A DNA stretch of 41,761 bases, taken from contig JANXRY010000015.1 in the NCBI GenBank assembly GCA_025356635.1, forward strand, positions 1 through 41,761. Reading direction: 5' to 3'. Each line of letters begins with the position of its first letter. Positions within the stretch are counted from its first letter, which is position 1. Origin of the DNA: Gammaproteobacteria bacterium. GTDB lineage: Bacteria; Pseudomonadota; Gammaproteobacteria; Xanthomonadales; Xanthomonadaceae. The translations under genes and the position numbers were made by a program. Positions 20,736 to 29,704 of the stretch are shown in pieces. The notes below the pieces were generated by a model that saw nothing but the letters and a program-made list of their open reading frames with translations, did not search any database and was not told the origin of the DNA.

Positions 20736-22378
<1,643 letters not shown>

Positions 22379-22394
22379 GCGCAGGGCTTTACTC

Positions 22395-23915
22395 ATGTCT
22401 CTGGCGTTGGCGCACAGCCGCGCCCGGGTCGGCGTGCACGCGCCGGCGGTCCGGGTGGAGGTCTACCTGTCGGGCGGATTGCCGGCACTGAATATGGTCG
22501 GATTGCCAGAAGCCGCAGTGCGCGAAAGCCGCGACCGCGTGCGGGCCGCCATCCAGTGCGCGCAGTTCGAATTCCCGGCGCGGCGTATTACCGTCAACCT
22601 CGCGCCAGCCGATCTTCCGAAAGACGGCGGTCGCTTCGACCTGCCGATCGCCCTCGGCATCCTCGCCGCCAACGGCGTGATCGAACCTACCGCGCTGTCC
22701 GAGATCGAGTTCATTGGTGAACTCGCGCTCACCGGCGAATTGCGTGCGGTCGATGGTGTATTGCCTGCGGCATTGGCGGCAGCGAGCGCCGGCCACAGCC
22801 TGATCGTTCCCGCCGGCAACGGCGCCGAGGCGGCGTTGGCGGGCAAGGGCCGCGCCTACACGGCGCGCACTTTGCTGGAAGTAGTGGCGCATCTCAACGG
22901 CGAGAAAACCCTGCCCTGCGCCGTCGCCGATCTTGTTGCCCGCACCGACCCGGGCCATCCGGACCTGGCCGACGTACGTGGCCAGATCCAGGCGCGGCGT
23001 GCGCTGGAAATCGCCGCCGCCGGCAACCACCACCTAATTTTCATCGGCCCGCCAGGCGGAGGAAAAACCTTGTTGGCAGCCCGCCTGCCCGGCCTGTTGC
23101 CCGATCTCGACGAACAAGAAGCCATGGAGGCCGCGTTGGTCGCGTCGGCCTGCGGCCACGCCCTGGATCCGGCGCAATGGCGGCAACGCCGATTTCGCGC
23201 GCCGCACCATACCGCCAGCGCCGCGGCGCTGGTCGGAGGTGGTTCGCGGCCGCGCCCCGGTGAAATTTCCCTGGCCCACCATGGCGTGCTGTTTCTCGAT
23301 GAACTCGCCGAGTGGAGTCGGCGAACGCTTGATGGTCTGCGCGAGCCGCTGGAGTCGGGCGTGGTCACGATCTCGCGCGCGGCCCATGTCGAAGAATTTC
23401 CGGCCCGTTTCCAACTGGTCGCGGCGATGAATCCCTGCCCCTGCGGTTGGGCCGGCGATCCGTCTGGTCGTTGTCGCTGCCCGGGCGAAGTGGTGGCGCG
23501 TTATCGCGCGCGCCTGTCCGGGCCACTGCTTGACCGCATCGACTTGCACGTGGCGGTACCGCGCCTGGCCGCGCACGAGATCCGCAGCGACGCGGTTCGC
23601 GGCGAGAGCACCGCCATTGTGCGCGCGCGCGTCCTGGCGGCTCGCGAGCGCCAGCACCAGCGCGCCGGGAAGTGCAATGCCCGGCTCAGTTCGGCGGAAG
23701 CCGAGCGCGATTGCGGGTTATCACCACGCGACAGCAATCTGCTCGAACGCGCGATGCACACCTTGCAGCTTTCGGCACGGGCCGCACACCGCATCCTGCG
23801 GGTGGCGCGCACCATCGCCGATATCGAAGGAGCCAATGGCATCGCCACCCCGCACTTGAGCGAAGCCATCGGCTACCGGCAGCTCGATCGCGGCGTGATT
23901 CGCGACGCCGCCTGA
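22395..23915 (+). CDS. comM: ComM/YifB-type MCM-like AAA+ ATPase
   Basis: 506-residue Mg-chelatase-like AAA+ protein. ComM is a hexameric branch-migration helicase that extends heteroduplex during natural transformation. An N-terminal Lon-protease-like domain (1-about 175) is followed by Walker A GPPGGGKT (218-225), Walker B VLFLDEL (298-304) and a four-Cys zinc motif in NPCPCGWAGDPSGRCRC. The Walker A has GGGKT where GTGKT is usual, a conservative change. The ATG at 22395 gives the family start MSLALAHSRA. ComM is widespread and its presence alone does not prove competence. Its end lies 9 bases from the convergent dehydrogenase gene. Confidence 0.94.
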   Translation: MSLALAHSRARVGVHAPAVRVEVYLSGGLPALNMVGLPEAAVRESRDRVRAAIQCAQFEFPARRITVNLAPADLPKDGGRFDLPIALGILAANGVIEPTALSEIEFIGELALTGELRAVDGVLPAALAAASAGHSLIVPAGNGAEAALAGKGRAYTARTLLEVVAHLNGEKTLPCAVADLVARTDPGHPDLADVRGQIQARRALEIAAAGNHHLIFIGPPGGGKTLLAARLPGLLPDLDEQEAMEAALVASACGHALDPAQWRQRRFRAPHHTASAAALVGGGSRPRPGEISLAHHGVLFLDELAEWSRRTLDGLREPLESGVVTISRAAHVEEFPARFQLVAAMNPCPCGWAGDPSGRCRCPGEVVARYRARLSGPLLDRIDLHVAVPRLAAHEIRSDAVRGESTAIVRARVLAARERQHQRAGKCNARLSSAEAERDCGLSPRDSNLLERAMHTLQLSARAAHRILRVARTIADIEGANGIATPHLSEAIGYRQLDRGVIRDAA

Positions 23916-23924
23916 CGGTGTCTT

Positions 23925-25094
23925 TCAGCGCACCGCTTTGCCAAGCGGGTCGAATTCGATGTTAGCGGCGCTATCACTGCGCCGGCCGAATCCGCAGACG
24001 GCGATCGCGCCCGTGCTGATGCCATCGAGCTCGAACAGACGCTCGGCGCAATCGTCGTTGATCGCGGCGGTGACGAACGCCCCGTAGCCCAGCTCGGTCG
24101 CCGCCAGCTGGAAGTTCTGCGACAAATGCCCGGCATCGAGCAGGATCACACGCCAGGCCTTGGCGTGTTGCCGGTATTTCCAGAATGTGCGCTGGAAGCG
24201 AGCGGCCATCAGCACCAGCACCGGCGCGTTGGCGAACCAGGACTGGCCCGCGACGAGTTCGCCCGCCAGCGGCGCGATCGCGTCCTCCTCCAGCAATCGC
24301 AGCGGCACCAGCGCATGCGCGACCCCGTGGTAGTGGTAGAGGCCGGGCGCGAGCCCGTCGACATCCTGCACGAGGACGAAGGCTTCGACCGGATGCAAGC
24401 CGCCGCCCGACGGGCTGTTCTTCTTGAGTGCCACGACATCGGGAGCGACTGTCTGCGTGGCCTGCGCGCCGAAGACCCGATGCAGGATGGTGCTGGCATC
24501 GGCCAACGGCAGCGGATGCGAGCGATCGAAATTGCGGCAGGTACTACGCGTTTCCAACAATGCGCCGAGCGCGGAGCGCCCCGGCATCGGCAAGGCCTGC
24601 CAACTCGTGCGAGGCCGCAGCTCAGGCGCTTCCGGCGGTGGCGGGCCATGCGTGCCGATCATCTCTTTCCAGGAACGGCCACCATCGCGACTTTCGTCCG
24701 CTTCGACGTCAACGTCGCGCCAGCTTCCGAATACTTGCGCGAGTGCCGCCGGTCCCCACCATGCAGTTTCGCGCAAGGCTTGTTCGCGGGCGCGCAGCGG
24801 CTGGTGTTCGGCATGGTCGCCGATCAGCAGCCCGGCATCGACCAGCCGGTCGATGCGTGCCTCGCCGAACAGTGCCGCCAGTTCCGCGCGTGGCCGGGCC
24901 TGCCCGGGAGTGACAACCTCGAACACCGGGATGTCCGCCGCCTCCAGTACTACCTCCCTGCCCAGGTGCGGGGCCAGTGCCACCCATTCGTCGTGTCGGA
25001 CAACCCCGGCGCCGCCGCCAAGAAGGTCCGCGAGGGAAAACTCCGGCCGCACGCGACGCTGCAGGAACAAAAAGCCAGGTCTGATCAAATTCAT
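23925..25094 (-). CDS. SagB-related peptide maturation dehydrogenase (FMN nitroreductase fold)
   Basis: 389-residue protein. An N-terminal region of about 160 residues with no clear enzyme motif precedes a nitroreductase/SagB-type domain (about 172-389): TRSTCRNFD (182-190) for FMN phosphate binding, SPSGGGLHPVEAF (227-239), GLYHYH (251-256) and a C-terminal GYGAFVTAA. SagB enzymes oxidise azolines to azoles in thiazole/oxazole-modified peptides. This variant resembles what I recall as the family 'putative peptide maturation dehydrogenase' (TIGR04511), defined by neighbourhood rather than experiment. It diverges from two precursor-peptide genes. No YcaO cyclodehydratase is nearby, so the substrate chemistry is unclear. 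ATG 25094 is the first Met before the conserved start. Confidence 0.8.
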   Translation of the reverse strand: MNLIRPGFLFLQRRVRPEFSLADLLGGGAGVVRHDEWVALAPHLGREVVLEAADIPVFEVVTPGQARPRAELAALFGEARIDRLVDAGLLIGDHAEHQPLRAREQALRETAWWGPAALAQVFGSWRDVDVEADESRDGGRSWKEMIGTHGPPPPEAPELRPRTSWQALPMPGRSALGALLETRSTCRNFDRSHPLPLADASTILHRVFGAQATQTVAPDVVALKKNSPSGGGLHPVEAFVLVQDVDGLAPGLYHYHGVAHALVPLRLLEEDAIAPLAGELVAGQSWFANAPVLVLMAARFQRTFWKYRQHAKAWRVILLDAGHLSQNFQLAATELGYGAFVTAAINDDCAERLFELDGISTGAIAVCGFGRRSDSAANIEFDPLGKAVR

Positions 25095-25151
25095 GGGTAG
25101 GCCAAACTCAGGACGTTGCGATGATCTTGCCACAGGCCGTGGTGTGCGCTG

Positions 25152-25180
25152 TTGCAGACCTGCGGCGCAACCGCTAGCCT
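25152..25180 (+). promoter_or_regulatory. Candidate promoter of the precursor-peptide genes
   Basis: TTGCAG (25152-25157) and TAGCCT (25175-25180) with a 17-base spacer lie in the 121-base gap between the divergent dehydrogenase and first precursor. They would give a leader of about 30 bases ending in the ribosome binding site AGGGGA before ATG 25216. Confidence 0.4.
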
Positions 25181-25215
25181 GATCCGGCCCCAGCAAGGGG
25201 CATCAGGGGAACACC

Positions 25216-25494
25216 ATGGCCAGCAATTTTTCATCCGAATTTGCCGACAAGCTGCTCGACAAGTTGTCCAACAATGACGCATTTCGCGCCAGCTTCGAGA
25301 AGAATCCGCGGGCAGCGCTCAAGGATCTGGGCTATGAAACGCCTGCCGCCGATCGCGACGTGCGCGGCGCCGATCCGGTGTTGTGCACGTACAGCGCAAA
25401 GCCGCTGGCGAGCAAGGAAAAAATCCGGGCGGCGCGCGGCGACCTGCGTATGGAGTTGACGACAGCGCCGTTCCGTTTTTCTTTGTCGGCCTAG
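25216..25494 (+). CDS. RiPP-like precursor peptide A (NHLP-related leader)
   Basis: 92-residue peptide. Residues about 7-42 (FADKLLDKLSNNDAFR, then NPRAALKDLGY) match the nitrile-hydratase-alpha-like leader pattern of NHLP-type precursors. The C-terminal part contains DPVLC (C57), SAKPLASKE (60-68), IRAAR (70-74) and TAPFRFSLS (83-91), nearly all shared with peptide B. It lacks the classic double-Gly leader end. I recall such peptides as family TIGR04509, a computationally defined modified peptide. Strong AGGGGA ribosome binding site before ATG 25216. Divergent from the SagB-like dehydrogenase; peptide B follows 123 bases later. Modified residues, cleavage site and export route cannot be read from the sequence. 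Confidence 0.78.
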   Translation: MASNFSSEFADKLLDKLSNNDAFRASFEKNPRAALKDLGYETPAADRDVRGADPVLCTYSAKPLASKEKIRAARGDLRMELTTAPFRFSLSA

Positions 25495-25585
25495 AGTTAT
25501 TTCAATGTCTATTGGCCACGATATCCACACCTAGTGCACGTGCCTCATGCTTATTACAATGAGCCTACGAACGGGGCTAGTCTGC

Positions 25586-25607
25586 CCTTCGGCAACGTTG
25601 CCGAAGG
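25586..25607. promoter_or_regulatory. Perfect 22-bp palindrome over the ribosome binding site of precursor B
   Basis: CCTTCGGCAAC is followed directly by its exact reverse complement GTTGCCGAAGG. In RNA it can form a 9-bp stem with a 4-base loop. Its right arm ends in AAGG, the start of the Shine-Dalgarno AAGGAGA (25604-25610) for ATG 25618. It could hide the ribosome binding site in mRNA or be an operator for a dimeric regulator. No T-run follows, so it is not an intrinsic terminator. Confidence 0.7.
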
Positions 25608-25617
25608 AGAGGGTTCA

Positions 25618-25980
25618 ATGACTGTGTCTTTTGAATCTCGAGAGCTTGGCGATTTGCAAGAACTGCACTTAACTGAGCAAGCACAAACAACTGGCAAGCA
25701 ATTCTCAACCGTTGTCGCAGAACGCTTGCTTGACCTATTGTCTACCGATGATGCGTTTCGTTCTTTGTTCGAACGTGATCCTCGCGCAGCGCTTCAGCAA
25801 ATCGGACATGCGACACCCGCAGTGGACTGTGGAATAAAAGGCGTAGACCCAGTGATATGCGTCTCCAGTGCGAAACCGCTAGCGAGCAAGGAACAGATCC
25901 GGGCGGCACGAAGCGAACTGCATTCGCAGCTCACCTCGGCGCCGTTCAAGTTCGCCCTCTCGGGTCTGGCGTCAGGCTGA
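25618..25980 (+). CDS. RiPP-like precursor peptide B (NHLP-related leader)
   Basis: 120-residue paralogue of precursor A with about 25 extra N-terminal residues. The leader block (ERLLDLLSTDDAFR, DPRAAL) and core block (DPVIC with C81, SAKPLASKE 84-92, IRAAR 94-98, TSAPFKFALS 106-115) align with peptide A without gaps from the leader on. It has a second Cys (C71) absent from A. ATG 25618 is chosen because AAGGAGA lies 7 bases upstream; an in-frame GTG at 25534 has no ribosome binding site. The first 250 bases are clearly lower in GC than the conserved 3' part, suggesting a mosaic gene. Its end overlaps the convergent cyclase gene by 9 bases. Confidence 0.78.
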   Translation: MTVSFESRELGDLQELHLTEQAQTTGKQFSTVVAERLLDLLSTDDAFRSLFERDPRAALQQIGHATPAVDCGIKGVDPVICVSSAKPLASKEQIRAARSELHSQLTSAPFKFALSGLASG

Positions 25981-28611
25981 AGGCAGCGCTCTTCGCACCG
26001 AGTCCACCCTGGGTGCGACGAAGGGAATCTTCTCGGCGTTTGGCCAAGCGGCGAGGAACGCATCCAGCTTTTCCCGGGCCAGCTTCGGCTGGCCCAGTTT
26101 TATCTCAATCTCCGCAGAACTGAGCAGGGCCAGGTTGCTCTCGACGATATTGGCGGCGGACCACATGTCCCAGCTATTCCATTCAGCGTAGGCGCGGCCA
26201 CGTTCTCGGGTGAGCCATTGAGCTTCTGCCAGGGCGCCCGGAAGATCGCCGGCCTGTTGCTTGGCCCTCATCAGCAGGGCATGGCTGAAATACAGTTCCG
26301 TGCCGTCGTTTCCCGCGGTGAGCAGCACGATCGCCTGCTTGGGCTGGTGCTGGGCCATGGCCAGCTCGGCCTGCACCAGGGTCGCCATGCTGATCTTCGA
26401 CGCATCGCCACCCGATCGCGCCAGCCCTTGGGCTTTCGCAAGCGCTGACTTGGCGGTCGCGAGATCGCCGTTGCGCGCCGCGAGCCAGCCGCCGGCGAGC
26501 ACCGGGAAGACGGCGGCGTCCTGCTCCAGAGCGTCTTCCGACGAGAGGTGCCGTGTCTGTTCGTAGACGAAGCCGCGCCACTGCTCGGCCGACAAGCGGC
26601 CCTGGTAGTTTTCCAAGACGAGCTGCGACCCATGTATCGCCACCGCCTGGTAGGGCGATACCGATTCCGCCAACTTCTTCAACGCCTCCAGTGAGTCCGT
26701 CGCCTCGTCCCACCGACCTTGGTCGACCATTAGTACCGGGTCATCCGTGCGCATATGCAAGTCAAGCCCACCCGCAAGGCCGTTTCGCGTCTGCGAGGTC
26801 AACAAGCGCCTCGCATCGGCAAAATTCCTTTGGGCTGCATAGGTTTCGGCATACTCGAGTTTCTCACCTGCCACGCCCAGAGCCTCGCTTTGCTGAAAGG
26901 CGGCGCGGGCCTCGTCGTAGCGATTGAGCGCCAGCAGGATCGCGCCCTGCAGGTAGTAGGCATTGCCGCTGGAAGGGTTCTTCGGTGAGAGCGCGGGTGC
27001 TAGAAATGACAGGGCATCGGCATAGGCATGATTATCAAGAGCGGCCTGCGAATAGCCGTTGTAAGCCGGAAAGGAATCGGGATACACCGAGGCCCAGACC
27101 TTGTACTTGGCCAGCAAGGGCTGGATCGGGCCGAACCGGGCGATGAACGCATCCAGTTGCAAAGCCTCGCGCTGGGTCATGCGTGTACTGTTTTCTTTGG
27201 CCTGGAGCGCCAGCCGCCTGGCTTCGGCCAAGTCGTCGTTCCTCGCTCGTACGCGTGCCATGCCCAGCTGCGCCATGGCGAACTTCGGATCCAGGGCCAA
27301 CGCCTGCTGGTAAAGCGCCAGCGCCTCGGTATCACGACTTTGGGCATAGGCGGTCACCGCCAGCGAGTAGGCGCGCAGCGCATCGAGGTTGGCGGTGGTG
27401 ACCTCGGCCAGCGGTTGCCCGCTGGACTGGATGGCTGGCAGGGATTCGCCCAGTCGTTCGCGCAGACGGCCATTGACGGTATCGAGTGATGCCAGAACCG
27501 AATCAGCGCCATGACCCTCGGCCGATTCGGCAAAAACGGTGGTCTGGCTGTTCGGGTCGACGACTTCCAAGCTGACCCGCAAACGCCCGCCGACTTCGGC
27601 CACAGTCGGCAGCAGCAACGCCCGGGCCCCTTCGCGCAAGGCGATCTCGCTGCCGATCGCCCGATCGATAGCCGTGTGCTCGCTGCGACCCATGCGCTGG
27701 AGCGCTGCCTGCATCTTGAGGTCGGAAATGACATTGACGAAGCGCGATTGCTCCAGGTCCACGCGCAGCGCGGTCTGCACCGATTCTTCGAAACGCGGGT
27801 CGTCGGTGAAGTTGCTGACATCGCCGAGCACGACCCAGTCGCGGGCATGGAAAGCCAGTGCCTGAGGGCTGCTGAAAGTACCGTAAAGATAGAAGCCAGC
27901 GACCACGAAAAATGCCAGCAACTCCGCCGCGATTACCGGTGGCCGCTTCCACAAGGGCAGCTCGCGCCAGGCCTTTATGCCGGAAGGTGGCAACGCCAAG
28001 GGTGCCAGTCCCGCCTCACCGACTTCGTGCACCAGCATCGCAGCGGGCACACCCTTGAAGCGGTAGCGGCCATGGACCAGCCAGCGCAACCGTCCGGCAC
28101 GCTCGCCCAGCTCGGACTGCGCGCGCTGGGCCAGGCTCTGGGCCATGCTCGTCATCAGGATTTGCCCAGGCAACGCCAAGGCCATCAATCGCGCCGCCAC
28201 AGGTTTGGCCAAGCCTTCGACTTCCAGCGGCTTGGCGCCCAGCGCGACCGCTGCAGTCGGATTGGTCCAGGCCATCAGCTCGCCGACATGGATGCCAATG
28301 CGCGCGCGCAAGGACAAGTTTTCGCTCCGTTCGACCTGACGCAGGATCTGTTGGTAGCGAAGGGCGAAATCCACGGCCTGGATGGGTCGTTCGAACAGCA
28401 CCAGCAGGCCGTCGGCCTTGTCGATCAAGCGACCGCCGGTGAACTCGATCAGGTCGCGGATCCGCAAGTCCAGATTCTGTAGCAGCTGTGCGGCCTCGGC
28501 ATCGCCCATGCGCTCGACCAGGGCGGTCGAGTTGGCGAGATCGGCCAGCAGCACCGCCCGCAAAAGCGGGGTGAGTGTCCGGCCAGCAACATCGGAGCTG
28601 GGAATGGCCAT
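25972..28611 (-). CDS. Class III nucleotide cyclase-like / TM / TPR protein of a peptide modification system
   Basis: 879-residue membrane protein. A cytoplasmic class III cyclase-like domain (about 14-200) has both metal aspartates (D24 in LLADLANST; D67 in DKADG), K65, RIGIHVGEL (104-112), R141 in AARL, and the terminal motif YRFKGVPAAMLVHEV. The Asn that normally precedes the Arg by four positions is Pro (P137). One membrane segment (about 225-243) leads to a TolB-like segment (LGDVSNFTDDPRFEES, 262-277) and then some 500 residues of TPR-type repeats, probably periplasmic. I recall this architecture as TIGR04510, 'putative peptide modification system cyclase'. Cyclase activity is unproven. 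ATG 28611 is the first Met before the conserved domain; 79 bases separate it from the upstream GGDEF gene. Confidence 0.8.
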   Translation of the reverse strand: MAIPSSDVAGRTLTPLLRAVLLADLANSTALVERMGDAEAAQLLQNLDLRIRDLIEFTGGRLIDKADGLLVLFERPIQAVDFALRYQQILRQVERSENLSLRARIGIHVGELMAWTNPTAAVALGAKPLEVEGLAKPVAARLMALALPGQILMTSMAQSLAQRAQSELGERAGRLRWLVHGRYRFKGVPAAMLVHEVGEAGLAPLALPPSGIKAWRELPLWKRPPVIAAELLAFFVVAGFYLYGTFSSPQALAFHARDWVVLGDVSNFTDDPRFEESVQTALRVDLEQSRFVNVISDLKMQAALQRMGRSEHTAIDRAIGSEIALREGARALLLPTVAEVGGRLRVSLEVVDPNSQTTVFAESAEGHGADSVLASLDTVNGRLRERLGESLPAIQSSGQPLAEVTTANLDALRAYSLAVTAYAQSRDTEALALYQQALALDPKFAMAQLGMARVRARNDDLAEARRLALQAKENSTRMTQREALQLDAFIARFGPIQPLLAKYKVWASVYPDSFPAYNGYSQAALDNHAYADALSFLAPALSPKNPSSGNAYYLQGAILLALNRYDEARAAFQQSEALGVAGEKLEYAETYAAQRNFADARRLLTSQTRNGLAGGLDLHMRTDDPVLMVDQGRWDEATDSLEALKKLAESVSPYQAVAIHGSQLVLENYQGRLSAEQWRGFVYEQTRHLSSEDALEQDAAVFPVLAGGWLAARNGDLATAKSALAKAQGLARSGGDASKISMATLVQAELAMAQHQPKQAIVLLTAGNDGTELYFSHALLMRAKQQAGDLPGALAEAQWLTRERGRAYAEWNSWDMWSAANIVESNLALLSSAEIEIKLGQPKLAREKLDAFLAAWPNAEKIPFVAPRVDSVRRALPSA

Positions 28612-28690
28612 CAGTGAACCGAGAGGAAAAAGCCGTGGGTTGTTACTGAGAACGCGACCGGCCCCACTGACCGGCCACTGCCCTGGCGGA

Positions 28691-29704
28691 TCAGGAGGCC
28701 AACCGCCAGCGATCACCACCCGCCCGCTTGGCCTCATAGAGCGAGGCATCGGCCAGGCTGTACCAGGTCGACCAGCCGCCCGGGTCTGTACAGAACGTAC
28801 CGCCAATGCTGATGGTCAGCTGTTTATGCAGCAGGCTGGGCAGGCGCATCGAACGGACCGCGGCCATCAGGCCCAGCGCCCGGTTGGCCAAATCGCCTTC
28901 GTCGGCCACCCGCAATACCAAGGCAAACTCGTCGCCGCCCAAGCGGCAAGGCAGGTCCATAGGGCCAGCATGGCGACGCAACTCGTCGGCGACTGCACGC
29001 AGGGCGGAATCGCCGGCGAGATGACCGCTGATGTCGTTGATGCGCTTGAAATGATCGATATCCACCAGTAGCACGGCCAAGTGTTCGCCGGCGAGTGGGT
29101 AGCGGATCAATTCATCGAGAAACCGGTACAGGCCTCGGCGATTGGACAGGCCGGTCAGATCATCCGAGCGCACCAACTGCTGGGCTACCGACAATTCGCT
29201 GCGCGTCTGGCGCAGGGTGTCGAGGGTTTGCATCAAGTCTTCATTGCGGCGTTTCAGGCTGAGTACCAACTGATGCTCGCCCGCTACCAAGTAGGCAAAG
29301 CTGCGCTGCATGAACTGCGCGGCCAGCACCGGATCGCTGTGCAATAGCGTTTGGAACGCCGGTCTGGTGATTTCACAGAGCGCTCCGGCTGACTCGACCA
29401 CGGCACTGGCGTAGCGCTGGTGCTGGCCGATGAAGACCGCCAGCTCCCCGAAATACTGACCCGGGCCAAGCACTTTGTCGCTTTGCCCGTCATCGAAGGT
29501 GAGCCGGACTTCGCCCACCTCGATCAAGTACATGCTCTGACCCGCATCGCCACGCAAGAACAGGTGCTCGCCAGGCAAGCTGGCGCGGACGACGCCCACG
29601 GCAACCAAAGCCTCGCGCTCCGCCGGCGTCAGCTCGGTGGGGGAGCGAATGACGAGATCGCCGCTTTCACTGACTCGGTGATCGGTATTAGGCACGGCAT
29701 CCAC
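28691..29704 (-). CDS. Cyclic nucleotide-binding domain-GGDEF diguanylate cyclase
   Basis: 337-residue cytoplasmic protein. The N-terminal CAP_ED domain (about 22-140) has the phosphate-binding cassette FGELA (85-89) and the downstream Arg of QRYAS (R98), so it should bind a cyclic nucleotide or similar ligand. A coiled-coil linker (about 145-178) leads to a GGDEF domain (about 180-335) with DDLTGLSNRR and an intact RLGGDEF (254-260), predicted to make c-di-GMP. The inhibitory RxxD site before GGDEF is missing (GPMD instead). The start is a GTG at 29704. It precedes the cyclase/TPR gene on the same strand, which suggests a cyclic-nucleotide to c-di-GMP relay. Confidence 0.88.
   Translation of the reverse strand: MDAVPNTDHRVSESGDLVIRSPTELTPAEREALVAVGVVRASLPGEHLFLRGDAGQSMYLIEVGEVRLTFDDGQSDKVLGPGQYFGELAVFIGQHQRYASAVVESAGALCEITRPAFQTLLHSDPVLAAQFMQRSFAYLVAGEHQLVLSLKRRNEDLMQTLDTLRQTRSELSVAQQLVRSDDLTGLSNRRGLYRFLDELIRYPLAGEHLAVLLVDIDHFKRINDISGHLAGDSALRAVADELRRHAGPMDLPCRLGGDEFALVLRVADEGDLANRALGLMAAVRSMRLPSLLHKQLTISIGGTFCTDPGGWSTWYSLADASLYEAKRAGGDRWRLAS

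What the first reader, a model, noticed from the sequence alone, without database searches (positions are those of the whole stretch)
23925..29704. Compact RiPP-like cassette with a cyclase/TPR protein and no known cyclodehydratase
Seen: a SagB-related dehydrogenase gene diverges from two precursor-like small genes, and a cyclase/TM/TPR gene plus a CNB-GGDEF gene converge on them. Known: SagB enzymes oxidise azolines made by YcaO proteins; NHLP-type leaders mark RiPP precursors. From memory, the three protein types match computationally proposed families (TIGR04509/04510/04511) that, as far as I know, lack experimental characterisation. Inference: this is a self-contained peptide modification system whose chemistry must differ from classical TOMMs, because no YcaO, LanM, radical SAM or protease/transporter gene is present.
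Basis: partly seen in the sequence, partly recalled or inferred. Interest (0 to 1): 0.92.

Follow-up and report, generated by a model that had tools for sequence, protein, structure and literature searches.

The report
Swappable peptide–receptor cassette controlling cyclic GMP
Next to a bacterial signalling pathway already known to make cyclic GMP sits a small peptide gene and an enzyme gene that change together with the receptor part of the cyclic-GMP-making protein from strain to strain, which suggests that these bacteria listen to their own modified peptide much as animal cells listen to peptide hormones.

Summary
The reading changes. The TIGR04510 'cyclase' belongs to the family of Xanthomonas campestris XC_0250, a proven guanylate cyclase, and the CNB-GGDEF gene to that of XC_0249, its proven cGMP-activated diguanylate cyclase (PMC3770947). 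Published critical residues sit at the published positions in relatives and nearly all are kept here. TIGR04510 and TIGR04511 co-occur in 81 of 83 genomes holding either. New result: the peptide tail diversifies with the dehydrogenase and with the TPR part of the cyclase, hardly with the cyclase catalytic domain, CNB or GGDEF. Close relatives carry unrelated versions of this module between similar flanks, as in staphylococcal agr. Best model: a modified peptide is the ligand of a TPR-type receptor guanylate cyclase that drives cGMP and then c-di-GMP. Peptide modification, export and binding are inferred, not shown; the TPR domain is predicted periplasmic, yet no exporter was found in the cassette.

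The parts
23925..25094 (-). SagB-related FMN-type dehydrogenase (TIGR04511) with an N-terminal sheet-plus-helices domain also covered by the ThcOx and BmdC matches
25095..25215 (.). divergent intergenic region between dehydrogenase and first peptide
   Evidence: sequence; no promoter tested
25216..25494 (+). NHLP-related precursor-like peptide 1, 92 aa
   Evidence: TIGR04509 74.5 bits; AGGGGA upstream of ATG
25618..25980 (+). NHLP-related precursor-like peptide 2, 120 aa (longest ORF from 25534)
   Evidence: TIGR04509 84.6 bits; AAGGAG upstream of ATG 25618
25972..28611 (-). class III guanylate cyclase domain - one TM helix - middle domain (TolB-N-like by my recognition, no call names it) - TPR superhelix (TIGR04510, XC_0250 family)
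   Evidence: 880.7 bits; residues D41, D71, L73, A150, A161 kept, L157 to M; TM; AF2 pLDDT 82
28691..29704 (-). cNMP-binding + GGDEF diguanylate cyclase (XC_0249 family), about 80 bp upstream of the cyclase
   Evidence: F73, E90, H98, E146 and the GGDEF motif kept, N145 to G; relative L057 aligns over all 129 residues of PDB 5h5o

Best explanation
A four-gene signalling cassette. Shown by published work on X. campestris relatives: the cyclase makes cGMP and the CNB-GGDEF protein, activated by cGMP, makes c-di-GMP, and both are needed for normal biofilm. Inferred here: the TPR half of the cyclase, predicted on the outer side of the inner membrane, is the receptor; its ligand is the C-terminal part of the small peptide, which the SagB-like flavoenzyme recognises by its conserved leader and oxidises; ligand binding sets cGMP output. 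The receptor part, the peptide and the enzyme are exchanged between strains as one specificity module, so different strains have different 'dialects' joined to the same output.
Against: The TPR domain is predicted periplasmic (a hydrophobic 19-mer over threshold at the expected place in 113 of 114, more K/R on the cyclase side in 114 of 114), but the profile-matched part of the peptide has no signal-like segment (0 of 114), the cassette has no exporter and the window's genome no C39 peptidase. Co-variation could come from co-inheritance of a linked tract. With the dehydrogenase also held constant the tail-TPR partial correlation drops to 0.24 (0.20 within clusters), and with the leader held too to 0.18 (0.10 within clusters). 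The split into two sets is not clean: over all loci the dehydrogenase also correlates with the cyclase domain (0.44-0.51) and CNB (0.45-0.49), and TPR with CNB (0.43); tail-CNB reaches 0 of 2000 plain permutations and 7 of 2000 within clusters, tail-middle domain 6 and 0 of 2000, tail-cyclase domain 6 and 556 of 2000. The 22 pairs are not independent. The likeness to NprR and Rap may be the common TPR superhelix only. One genome (G278, L071) keeps cyclase and CNB-GGDEF without peptide or dehydrogenase. Expression of the cyclase domain alone restored biofilm in an XC_0250 mutant (PMC3770947), so the receptor part is not essential for output there.
Confidence: 0.58

Rival explanations
1. Linked-tract rival: the region is a recombination island under diversifying pressure (phage, competitors or kin discrimination), with the peptide a toxin or surface determinant and the TPR part its immunity or recognition partner; cGMP is a response to damage, not to a self signal.
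For: Allele replacement between conserved flanks; alleles nearer across genus-like clusters (TPR 43 of 96 loci, cyclase domain 5 of 96); weak likeness of the CNB and cyclase domains to Pycsar models (27.7 and 19.9 bits).
Against: No toxin or immunity family among the hits of the cassette's proteins; output residues conserved in 114 of 114 loci; published loss of XC_0250 or XC_0249 gives reduced biofilm and virulence, with no self-killing reported in the parts read.
Confidence: 0.15
2. Intracellular-sensor rival: peptide and flavoenzyme form a cytoplasmic redox or carbon-status sensor (the cassette lies near the glyoxylate shunt genes) that contacts the cyclase directly; nothing is exported.
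For: No exporter in the cassette, no C39 peptidase in the window's genome, no signal-like segment in the matched part of the peptides; isocitrate lyase and malate synthase each within the fetched stretch in 139 of 161 loci (families confirmed for the window); flavoenzyme; the dehydrogenase does correlate with the cyclase domain over all loci (0.44-0.51).
Against: The peptide tail hardly co-varies with the cytoplasmic cyclase domain, CNB or GGDEF but does with the TPR part beyond the TM helix; such a sensor gives no reason for allele exchange.
Confidence: 0.16
3. One reading: a RiPP natural-product pathway in which the cyclase and CNB-GGDEF are only regulators of peptide production.
For: TIGR04509 annotation, SagB-like enzyme, variable peptide tails.
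Against: No further tailoring, cleavage or export gene in the window's cassette (neighbours in other loci were not classified beyond the probes); the TPR part diversifies with the tail, which a regulator of production has no need to do.
Confidence: 0.09

Closest known systems
XC_0250 / XC_0249 cGMP to c-di-GMP pathway of Xanthomonas campestris (PMC3770947; parts 1, 2 and 4 of 4 read)
   Same: Linked genes, domain architecture, and the tested catalytic and cGMP-binding residues.
   Different: The paper calls the TPR-bearing domain uncharacterised, and its main text has no occurrence of 'peptide', 'dehydrogenase' or 'nitroreductase' (term search; Figure 1A and the supplement could not be seen). 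A 2019 review still calls that domain of uncharacterised function (PMC8042644, passages).
NCBIfam trio TIGR04509/TIGR04510/TIGR04511 (annotation names only)
   Same: All three over cut-off here.
   Different: The model names a 'putative peptide modification system cyclase'; the CNB-GGDEF partner and the cGMP function are not part of the descriptions shown.
Staphylococcal agr (PMC10482373, passages)
   Same: A hypervariable stretch incorporating the peptide gene gives the groups; that it covers parts of the modifying enzyme and of the receptor's sensor half is recalled.
   Different: agr uses a histidine kinase and thiolactone peptides; here a receptor guanylate cyclase, a SagB-like flavoenzyme and an NHLP-type precursor, and secretion is not shown.
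Os1348-Os1351 cluster of Pseudomonas sp. Os17 (PMC7726476, passages)
   Same: Nitrile-hydratase-related small protein with a predicted SagB-type dehydrogenase.
   Different: Has predicted peptidase and nearby transporter genes and is linked to antibiotic activity; 'adenylate cyclase' does not occur in the text.
TPR pheromone receptors NprR and Rap (matches; their RRNPP family name is recalled)
   Same: TPR superhelix that reads a peptide.
   Different: Cytoplasmic, unmodified peptide, no cyclase (recalled); the likeness found is of fold only.

Membership tests
XC_0250/XC_0249 cGMP relay | class III cyclase with D41, D71, L73, A150, L157, A161 plus TPR domain | tested here: met
   window keeps five of six, L157 is M (M in 15 of 114 loci); TPR
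XC_0250/XC_0249 cGMP relay | CNB pocket F73, E90, H98, N145, E146 and intact GGDEF | tested here: met
   four of five in the window, N145 is G (G in 9 of 114); GGDEF 114 of 114
XC_0250/XC_0249 cGMP relay | enzyme activity | not testable with these tools
   needs purified protein
TIGR04509/10/11 cassette | all three families over cut-off and adjacent | tested here: met
   for the window; TIGR04510 with TIGR04511 in 81 of 83 genomes holding either
NHLP-leader TOMM precursors (PMC2887384, abstract and outline read) | Gly-Gly cleavage motif | tested here: not met
   no GG in either window peptide (sequence)
NHLP-leader TOMM precursors | linked ABC transporter | tested here: not met
   none among the cassette's proteins; no C39 peptidase in the genome; other transporter types not searched
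TOMM / azole peptides | YcaO cyclodehydratase | tested here: not met
   own genome 97.4% complete
TOMM / azole peptides | SagB-type FMN dehydrogenase | tested here: met
   TIGR03605 120 bits, cut-off 78.4; fold
agr-like polymorphic peptide signalling | co-variation of enzyme, peptide and sensor domain with conserved output | tested here: met
   the separation is clear for the peptide tail, less so for the dehydrogenase
agr-like polymorphic peptide signalling | peptide is secreted and activates its own receptor | not testable with these tools
   no sequence evidence for export
Pycsar anti-phage system | pyrimidine cyclase plus cNMP-gated toxic effector | tested here: inconclusive
   weak domain-level hits only; the CNB domain here is fused to GGDEF

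The most novel reading that the evidence does not exclude
A bacterial peptide-gated receptor guanylate cyclase: an enzymatically modified self-peptide, its flavoenzyme and the receptor ectodomain form an exchangeable 'dialect' module, shared across genera, plugged into a conserved cGMP to c-di-GMP output that controls biofilm and, in plant pathogens, virulence.
Probability: 0.5. Interest if true: 0.93.

Novelty: new variant of a known kind. Interest (0 to 1): 0.82.

Why it matters
cGMP signalling in bacteria has few known inputs, and the TPR domain of XC_0250 was still called uncharacterised in the 2019 review passages seen. The co-diversification names a candidate ligand, a candidate modifying enzyme and the stretch likely to set specificity, so the input can be tested directly. 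It also joins two bodies of work (computational RiPP families and cGMP control of biofilm) that describe the same locus without reference to each other in what I read. It would be, as far as I recall, the first RiPP-like peptide receptor of the guanylate cyclase type in bacteria; that is from recall plus the searches, not an exhaustive search.

Tried and rejected
Peptide cyclase reading of TIGR04510: rejected, the domain is a nucleotide cyclase. Anti-phage reading: PADLOC hits weak. Cys-based azole chemistry for the peptides: 20 of 158 motif-bearing peptides (164 distinct in all, 6 without the motif) have no Cys, so a Cys product is not general; chemistry left open. Break points were inflated by BLAST extension through the dehydrogenase (seen) and were replaced by windowed identities; the raw BLAST ends carry the same caution. 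The CNB-GGDEF profile picked up shadow ORFs; one search required both domains. Loci L106-L108 are not family members and were dropped. For co-variation 161 loci shrank to 150 (exactly one full cyclase; L187, L142 and tandem copies dropped), 130 (all six genes), 114 (nonredundant). Residue numbers run one low; one search is right. One search lists L040, L098 and L105 as lacking genes; these are artefacts of ORF choice, contig end and orientation. Of the eight loci it lists without CNB-GGDEF, L083 is the second of two tandem copies (CNB-GGDEF lies before the first) and L095 a tandem copy near a contig end. No exporter search was made beyond the C39 peptidase. An RRE (leader-binding) domain in the dehydrogenase N-terminus was looked for only through whole-model matches; no row is titled RRE.

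Full report
What is there. NCBIfam gives TIGR04511 (dehydrogenase), TIGR04509 twice (peptides) and TIGR04510 (cyclase), all well over cut-off; Pfam gives cNMP_binding and GGDEF for the fifth. The genome (G000, 2.5 Mb, 126 contigs, 97.4% complete) has no YcaO, no C39 peptidase and no other TIGR04509 peptide. The window's family also holds Xanthomonas: G262, of that family, has a contig of the same length as one of Xanthomonas sp. Leaf131 and a cyclase 100% identical to its. The window's own species name was not obtained.

The cassette has four gene types, not three. Of 157 loci with a full cyclase, 149 have the CNB-GGDEF gene directly upstream (median gap 31 bp) and 153 have a convergent peptide gene, whose 3' end overlaps the cyclase in 79 of 153. 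In an order sample of 299 genomes TIGR04510 and TIGR04511 pass cut-off in 82 each and together in 81; one genome has the cyclase only (G278), one the dehydrogenase with a cyclase cut by a contig end (G261). In a phylum sample TIGR04511 passes cut-off in 8 of 398 genomes, all 8 in this order. Isocitrate lyase, malate synthase and a LysR gene lie in the same fetched stretch in 139, 139 and 137 of 161 loci (window families).

The output half is a known pathway. PMC3770947 shows that XC_0250 (886 aa, cyclase plus TPR) makes cGMP and needs D41, D71, L73, A150, L157 and A161, and that the CNB domain of XC_0249 binds cGMP through F73, E90, H98, N145 and E146 and thereby raises diguanylate cyclase activity; mutants of either have reduced biofilm and virulence. 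X. campestris itself was not among the 80 named loci, so identity rests on this: the six cyclase residues sit at exactly these numbers in an 886-aa relative (L035) and the five CNB residues at theirs in L057, and L057 matches PDB 5h5o, a 129-residue domain of a 'diguanylate cyclase', over its whole length at near identity (that 5h5o is XC_0249 is recalled). Across 114 nonredundant loci D41, D71, A150, F73, E90, H98, E146 and GGDEF are invariant. The window has M for L157 and G for N145.

The input half is polymorphic. Proteins of 114 loci with all parts were compared, with aceA and aceB as background. Mean identities: cyclase domain 0.71, CNB 0.61, GGDEF 0.59, middle domain 0.59, dehydrogenase 0.40 (N) and 0.56 (C), TPR 0.31, peptide leader 0.36, peptide tail 0.22. 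Partial rank correlations are 0.57-0.81 among cyclase domain, TM, CNB and GGDEF, and 0.40-0.81 among TPR, dehydrogenase and peptide; the peptide tail has 0.10-0.19 with the first set. The two sets are not wholly apart: dehydrogenase with cyclase domain is 0.44-0.51 and with CNB 0.45-0.49, dehydrogenase with middle domain 0.57-0.61, TPR with CNB 0.43. Permutations at or above the observed value, of 2000: tail-TPR 0, tail-dehydrogenase 0, tail-CNB 0, tail-middle domain 6, tail-cyclase domain 6; permuting within genus-like clusters: tail-TPR 0, tail-dehydrogenase C part 0, tail-middle domain 0, tail-CNB 7, tail-cyclase domain 556. In the 778 same-cluster pairs the tail has 0.54 with TPR, 0.53-0.58 with dehydrogenase, 0.41 with the middle domain, and -0.10 to -0.01 with cyclase domain, TM, CNB and GGDEF.

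The change along the cyclase is abrupt. In 100-residue windows the correlation with the tail is 0.06-0.14 for windows ending by residue 417, 0.29 for 368-467, 0.41-0.45 from 418 to 617, then 0.29-0.37. The strongest part is, within the TPR region, the one furthest in DNA from the peptide gene, which simple linkage does not predict; the last part, which can overlap the peptide gene, is not the strongest.

Whole alleles are exchanged. Of 145 locus pairs with aceA/B distance under 0.06, 104 have TPR identity under 70%; medians in these are aceB 95, aceA 97, GGDEF 95, CNB 95, cyclase 95, TM 70, middle domain 52, TPR 30, leader 35, tail 25, dehydrogenase 38 and 54 percent. None of 76 pairs with TPR over 65% has a tail under 50%. 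Of 97 such pairs with TPR under 50%, 79 have conserved DNA past the dehydrogenase; median DNA identity there is 0.89 before the cyclase, 0.34 inside and 0.90 beyond. The left break varies: 5th to 95th percentile residue 18 to 279, median 173. In several Xanthomonas pairs it is at residue 235-248, in the TM helix; in pairs of the cluster that includes Stenotrophomonas it can lie at the start of the cyclase gene. The right break is a median 271 bp past the dehydrogenase. Two loci both titled X. arboricola (L113, L152) differ in this way over about 3.3 kb. With TPR identity of 60% as a limit there are 78 alleles among 114 loci; median tail identity is 0.88 within alleles (82 pairs) and 0.26 between alleles of one cluster (698 pairs). 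The nearest other-allele relative lies in another genus-like cluster in 43 of 96 loci for TPR, 51 for tail, 40-41 for dehydrogenase, 36 for the middle domain, but 5 for cyclase domain, 7 for CNB, 4 for GGDEF, 0 for aceA and 7 for aceB.

Ligand or substrate? In 22 pairs with dehydrogenase at least 88% identical, tail identity follows TPR identity (rho 0.82), not cyclase domain (0.19). In L138/L148 the first 43 aligned peptide residues are the same and the dehydrogenases 99% identical, while tail and TPR diverge. This fits a leader read by the enzyme and a tail read by the TPR domain. Over all loci, tail-TPR given background and dehydrogenase is 0.24 and tail-dehydrogenase given TPR 0.15; within clusters 0.20 and 0.18, so the two effects are hard to separate in general.

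What is weak. Peptide modification, export and binding have not been shown. No exporter is known. The cyclase domain alone restores biofilm in an X. campestris XC_0250 mutant (PMC3770947). Exceptions exist: G278/L071 lacks peptide and dehydrogenase; L117 matches only the first 56 residues of the dehydrogenase; in L187 cyclase, peptide and dehydrogenase are all in pieces while CNB-GGDEF is intact. Eight loci are listed without CNB-GGDEF, of which L083 and L095 are explained by tandem copies or a contig end.

Literature. Searches for the family names gave no paper on the trio (none; one paper, on graspetides, PMC8939145, passages read, which mentions SagB-like enzymes beside ATP-grasp ligases). 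A search for XC_0250 or XC_0249 gave six papers, of which two were looked into. Searches joining cGMP, Xanthomonas, SagB, NHLP, RiPP and nitroreductase terms gave, in the rows listed (8 of 8, 14 of 14, 15 of 29, 12 of 638), no title or abstract that links the peptide or dehydrogenase with this pathway. The library lacks most subscription papers and all preprints.

Noticed in passing
L187 (Xanthomonas phaseoli pv. phaseoli ATCC 49119) and L117 (X. vasicola NCPPB 2417): The cassette is decaying: in L187 cyclase, peptide and dehydrogenase are all in pieces while CNB-GGDEF is intact; in L117 only the first 56 residues of the dehydrogenase match.
   Followed up: partly
L060 11435-13360, L061 11666-13591: A second TIGR04510-like ORF without the cyclase domain follows the dehydrogenase (profile positions 206/208-810): a receptor half without output, possibly a decoy or relic of a replaced allele.
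   Followed up: no
L080, L083, L090, L095: Tandem copies of cyclase-peptide(-dehydrogenase); L080, L083 and L090 have a CNB-GGDEF gene next to the outer copy only.
   Followed up: no
L105 4723-6794: Five near-identical tandem peptide copies on the other side of the dehydrogenase.
   Followed up: no
L069, L076, L077, L101, L102, L104: In these six loci the dehydrogenase is inverted; their peptides end in patterns such as FCR, VFRR, VFMV or VFTI. Several of the dehydrogenases score only about 300 bits against TIGR04511.
   Followed up: partly
L178: A record titled Bacillus subtilis SK7B5 carries the cassette; most likely a mislabelled or contaminated assembly.
   Followed up: no
window 22109-23915: UbiK and YifB genes flank the dehydrogenase side; YifB is in the fetched stretch in 68 of 161 loci.
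   Followed up: no
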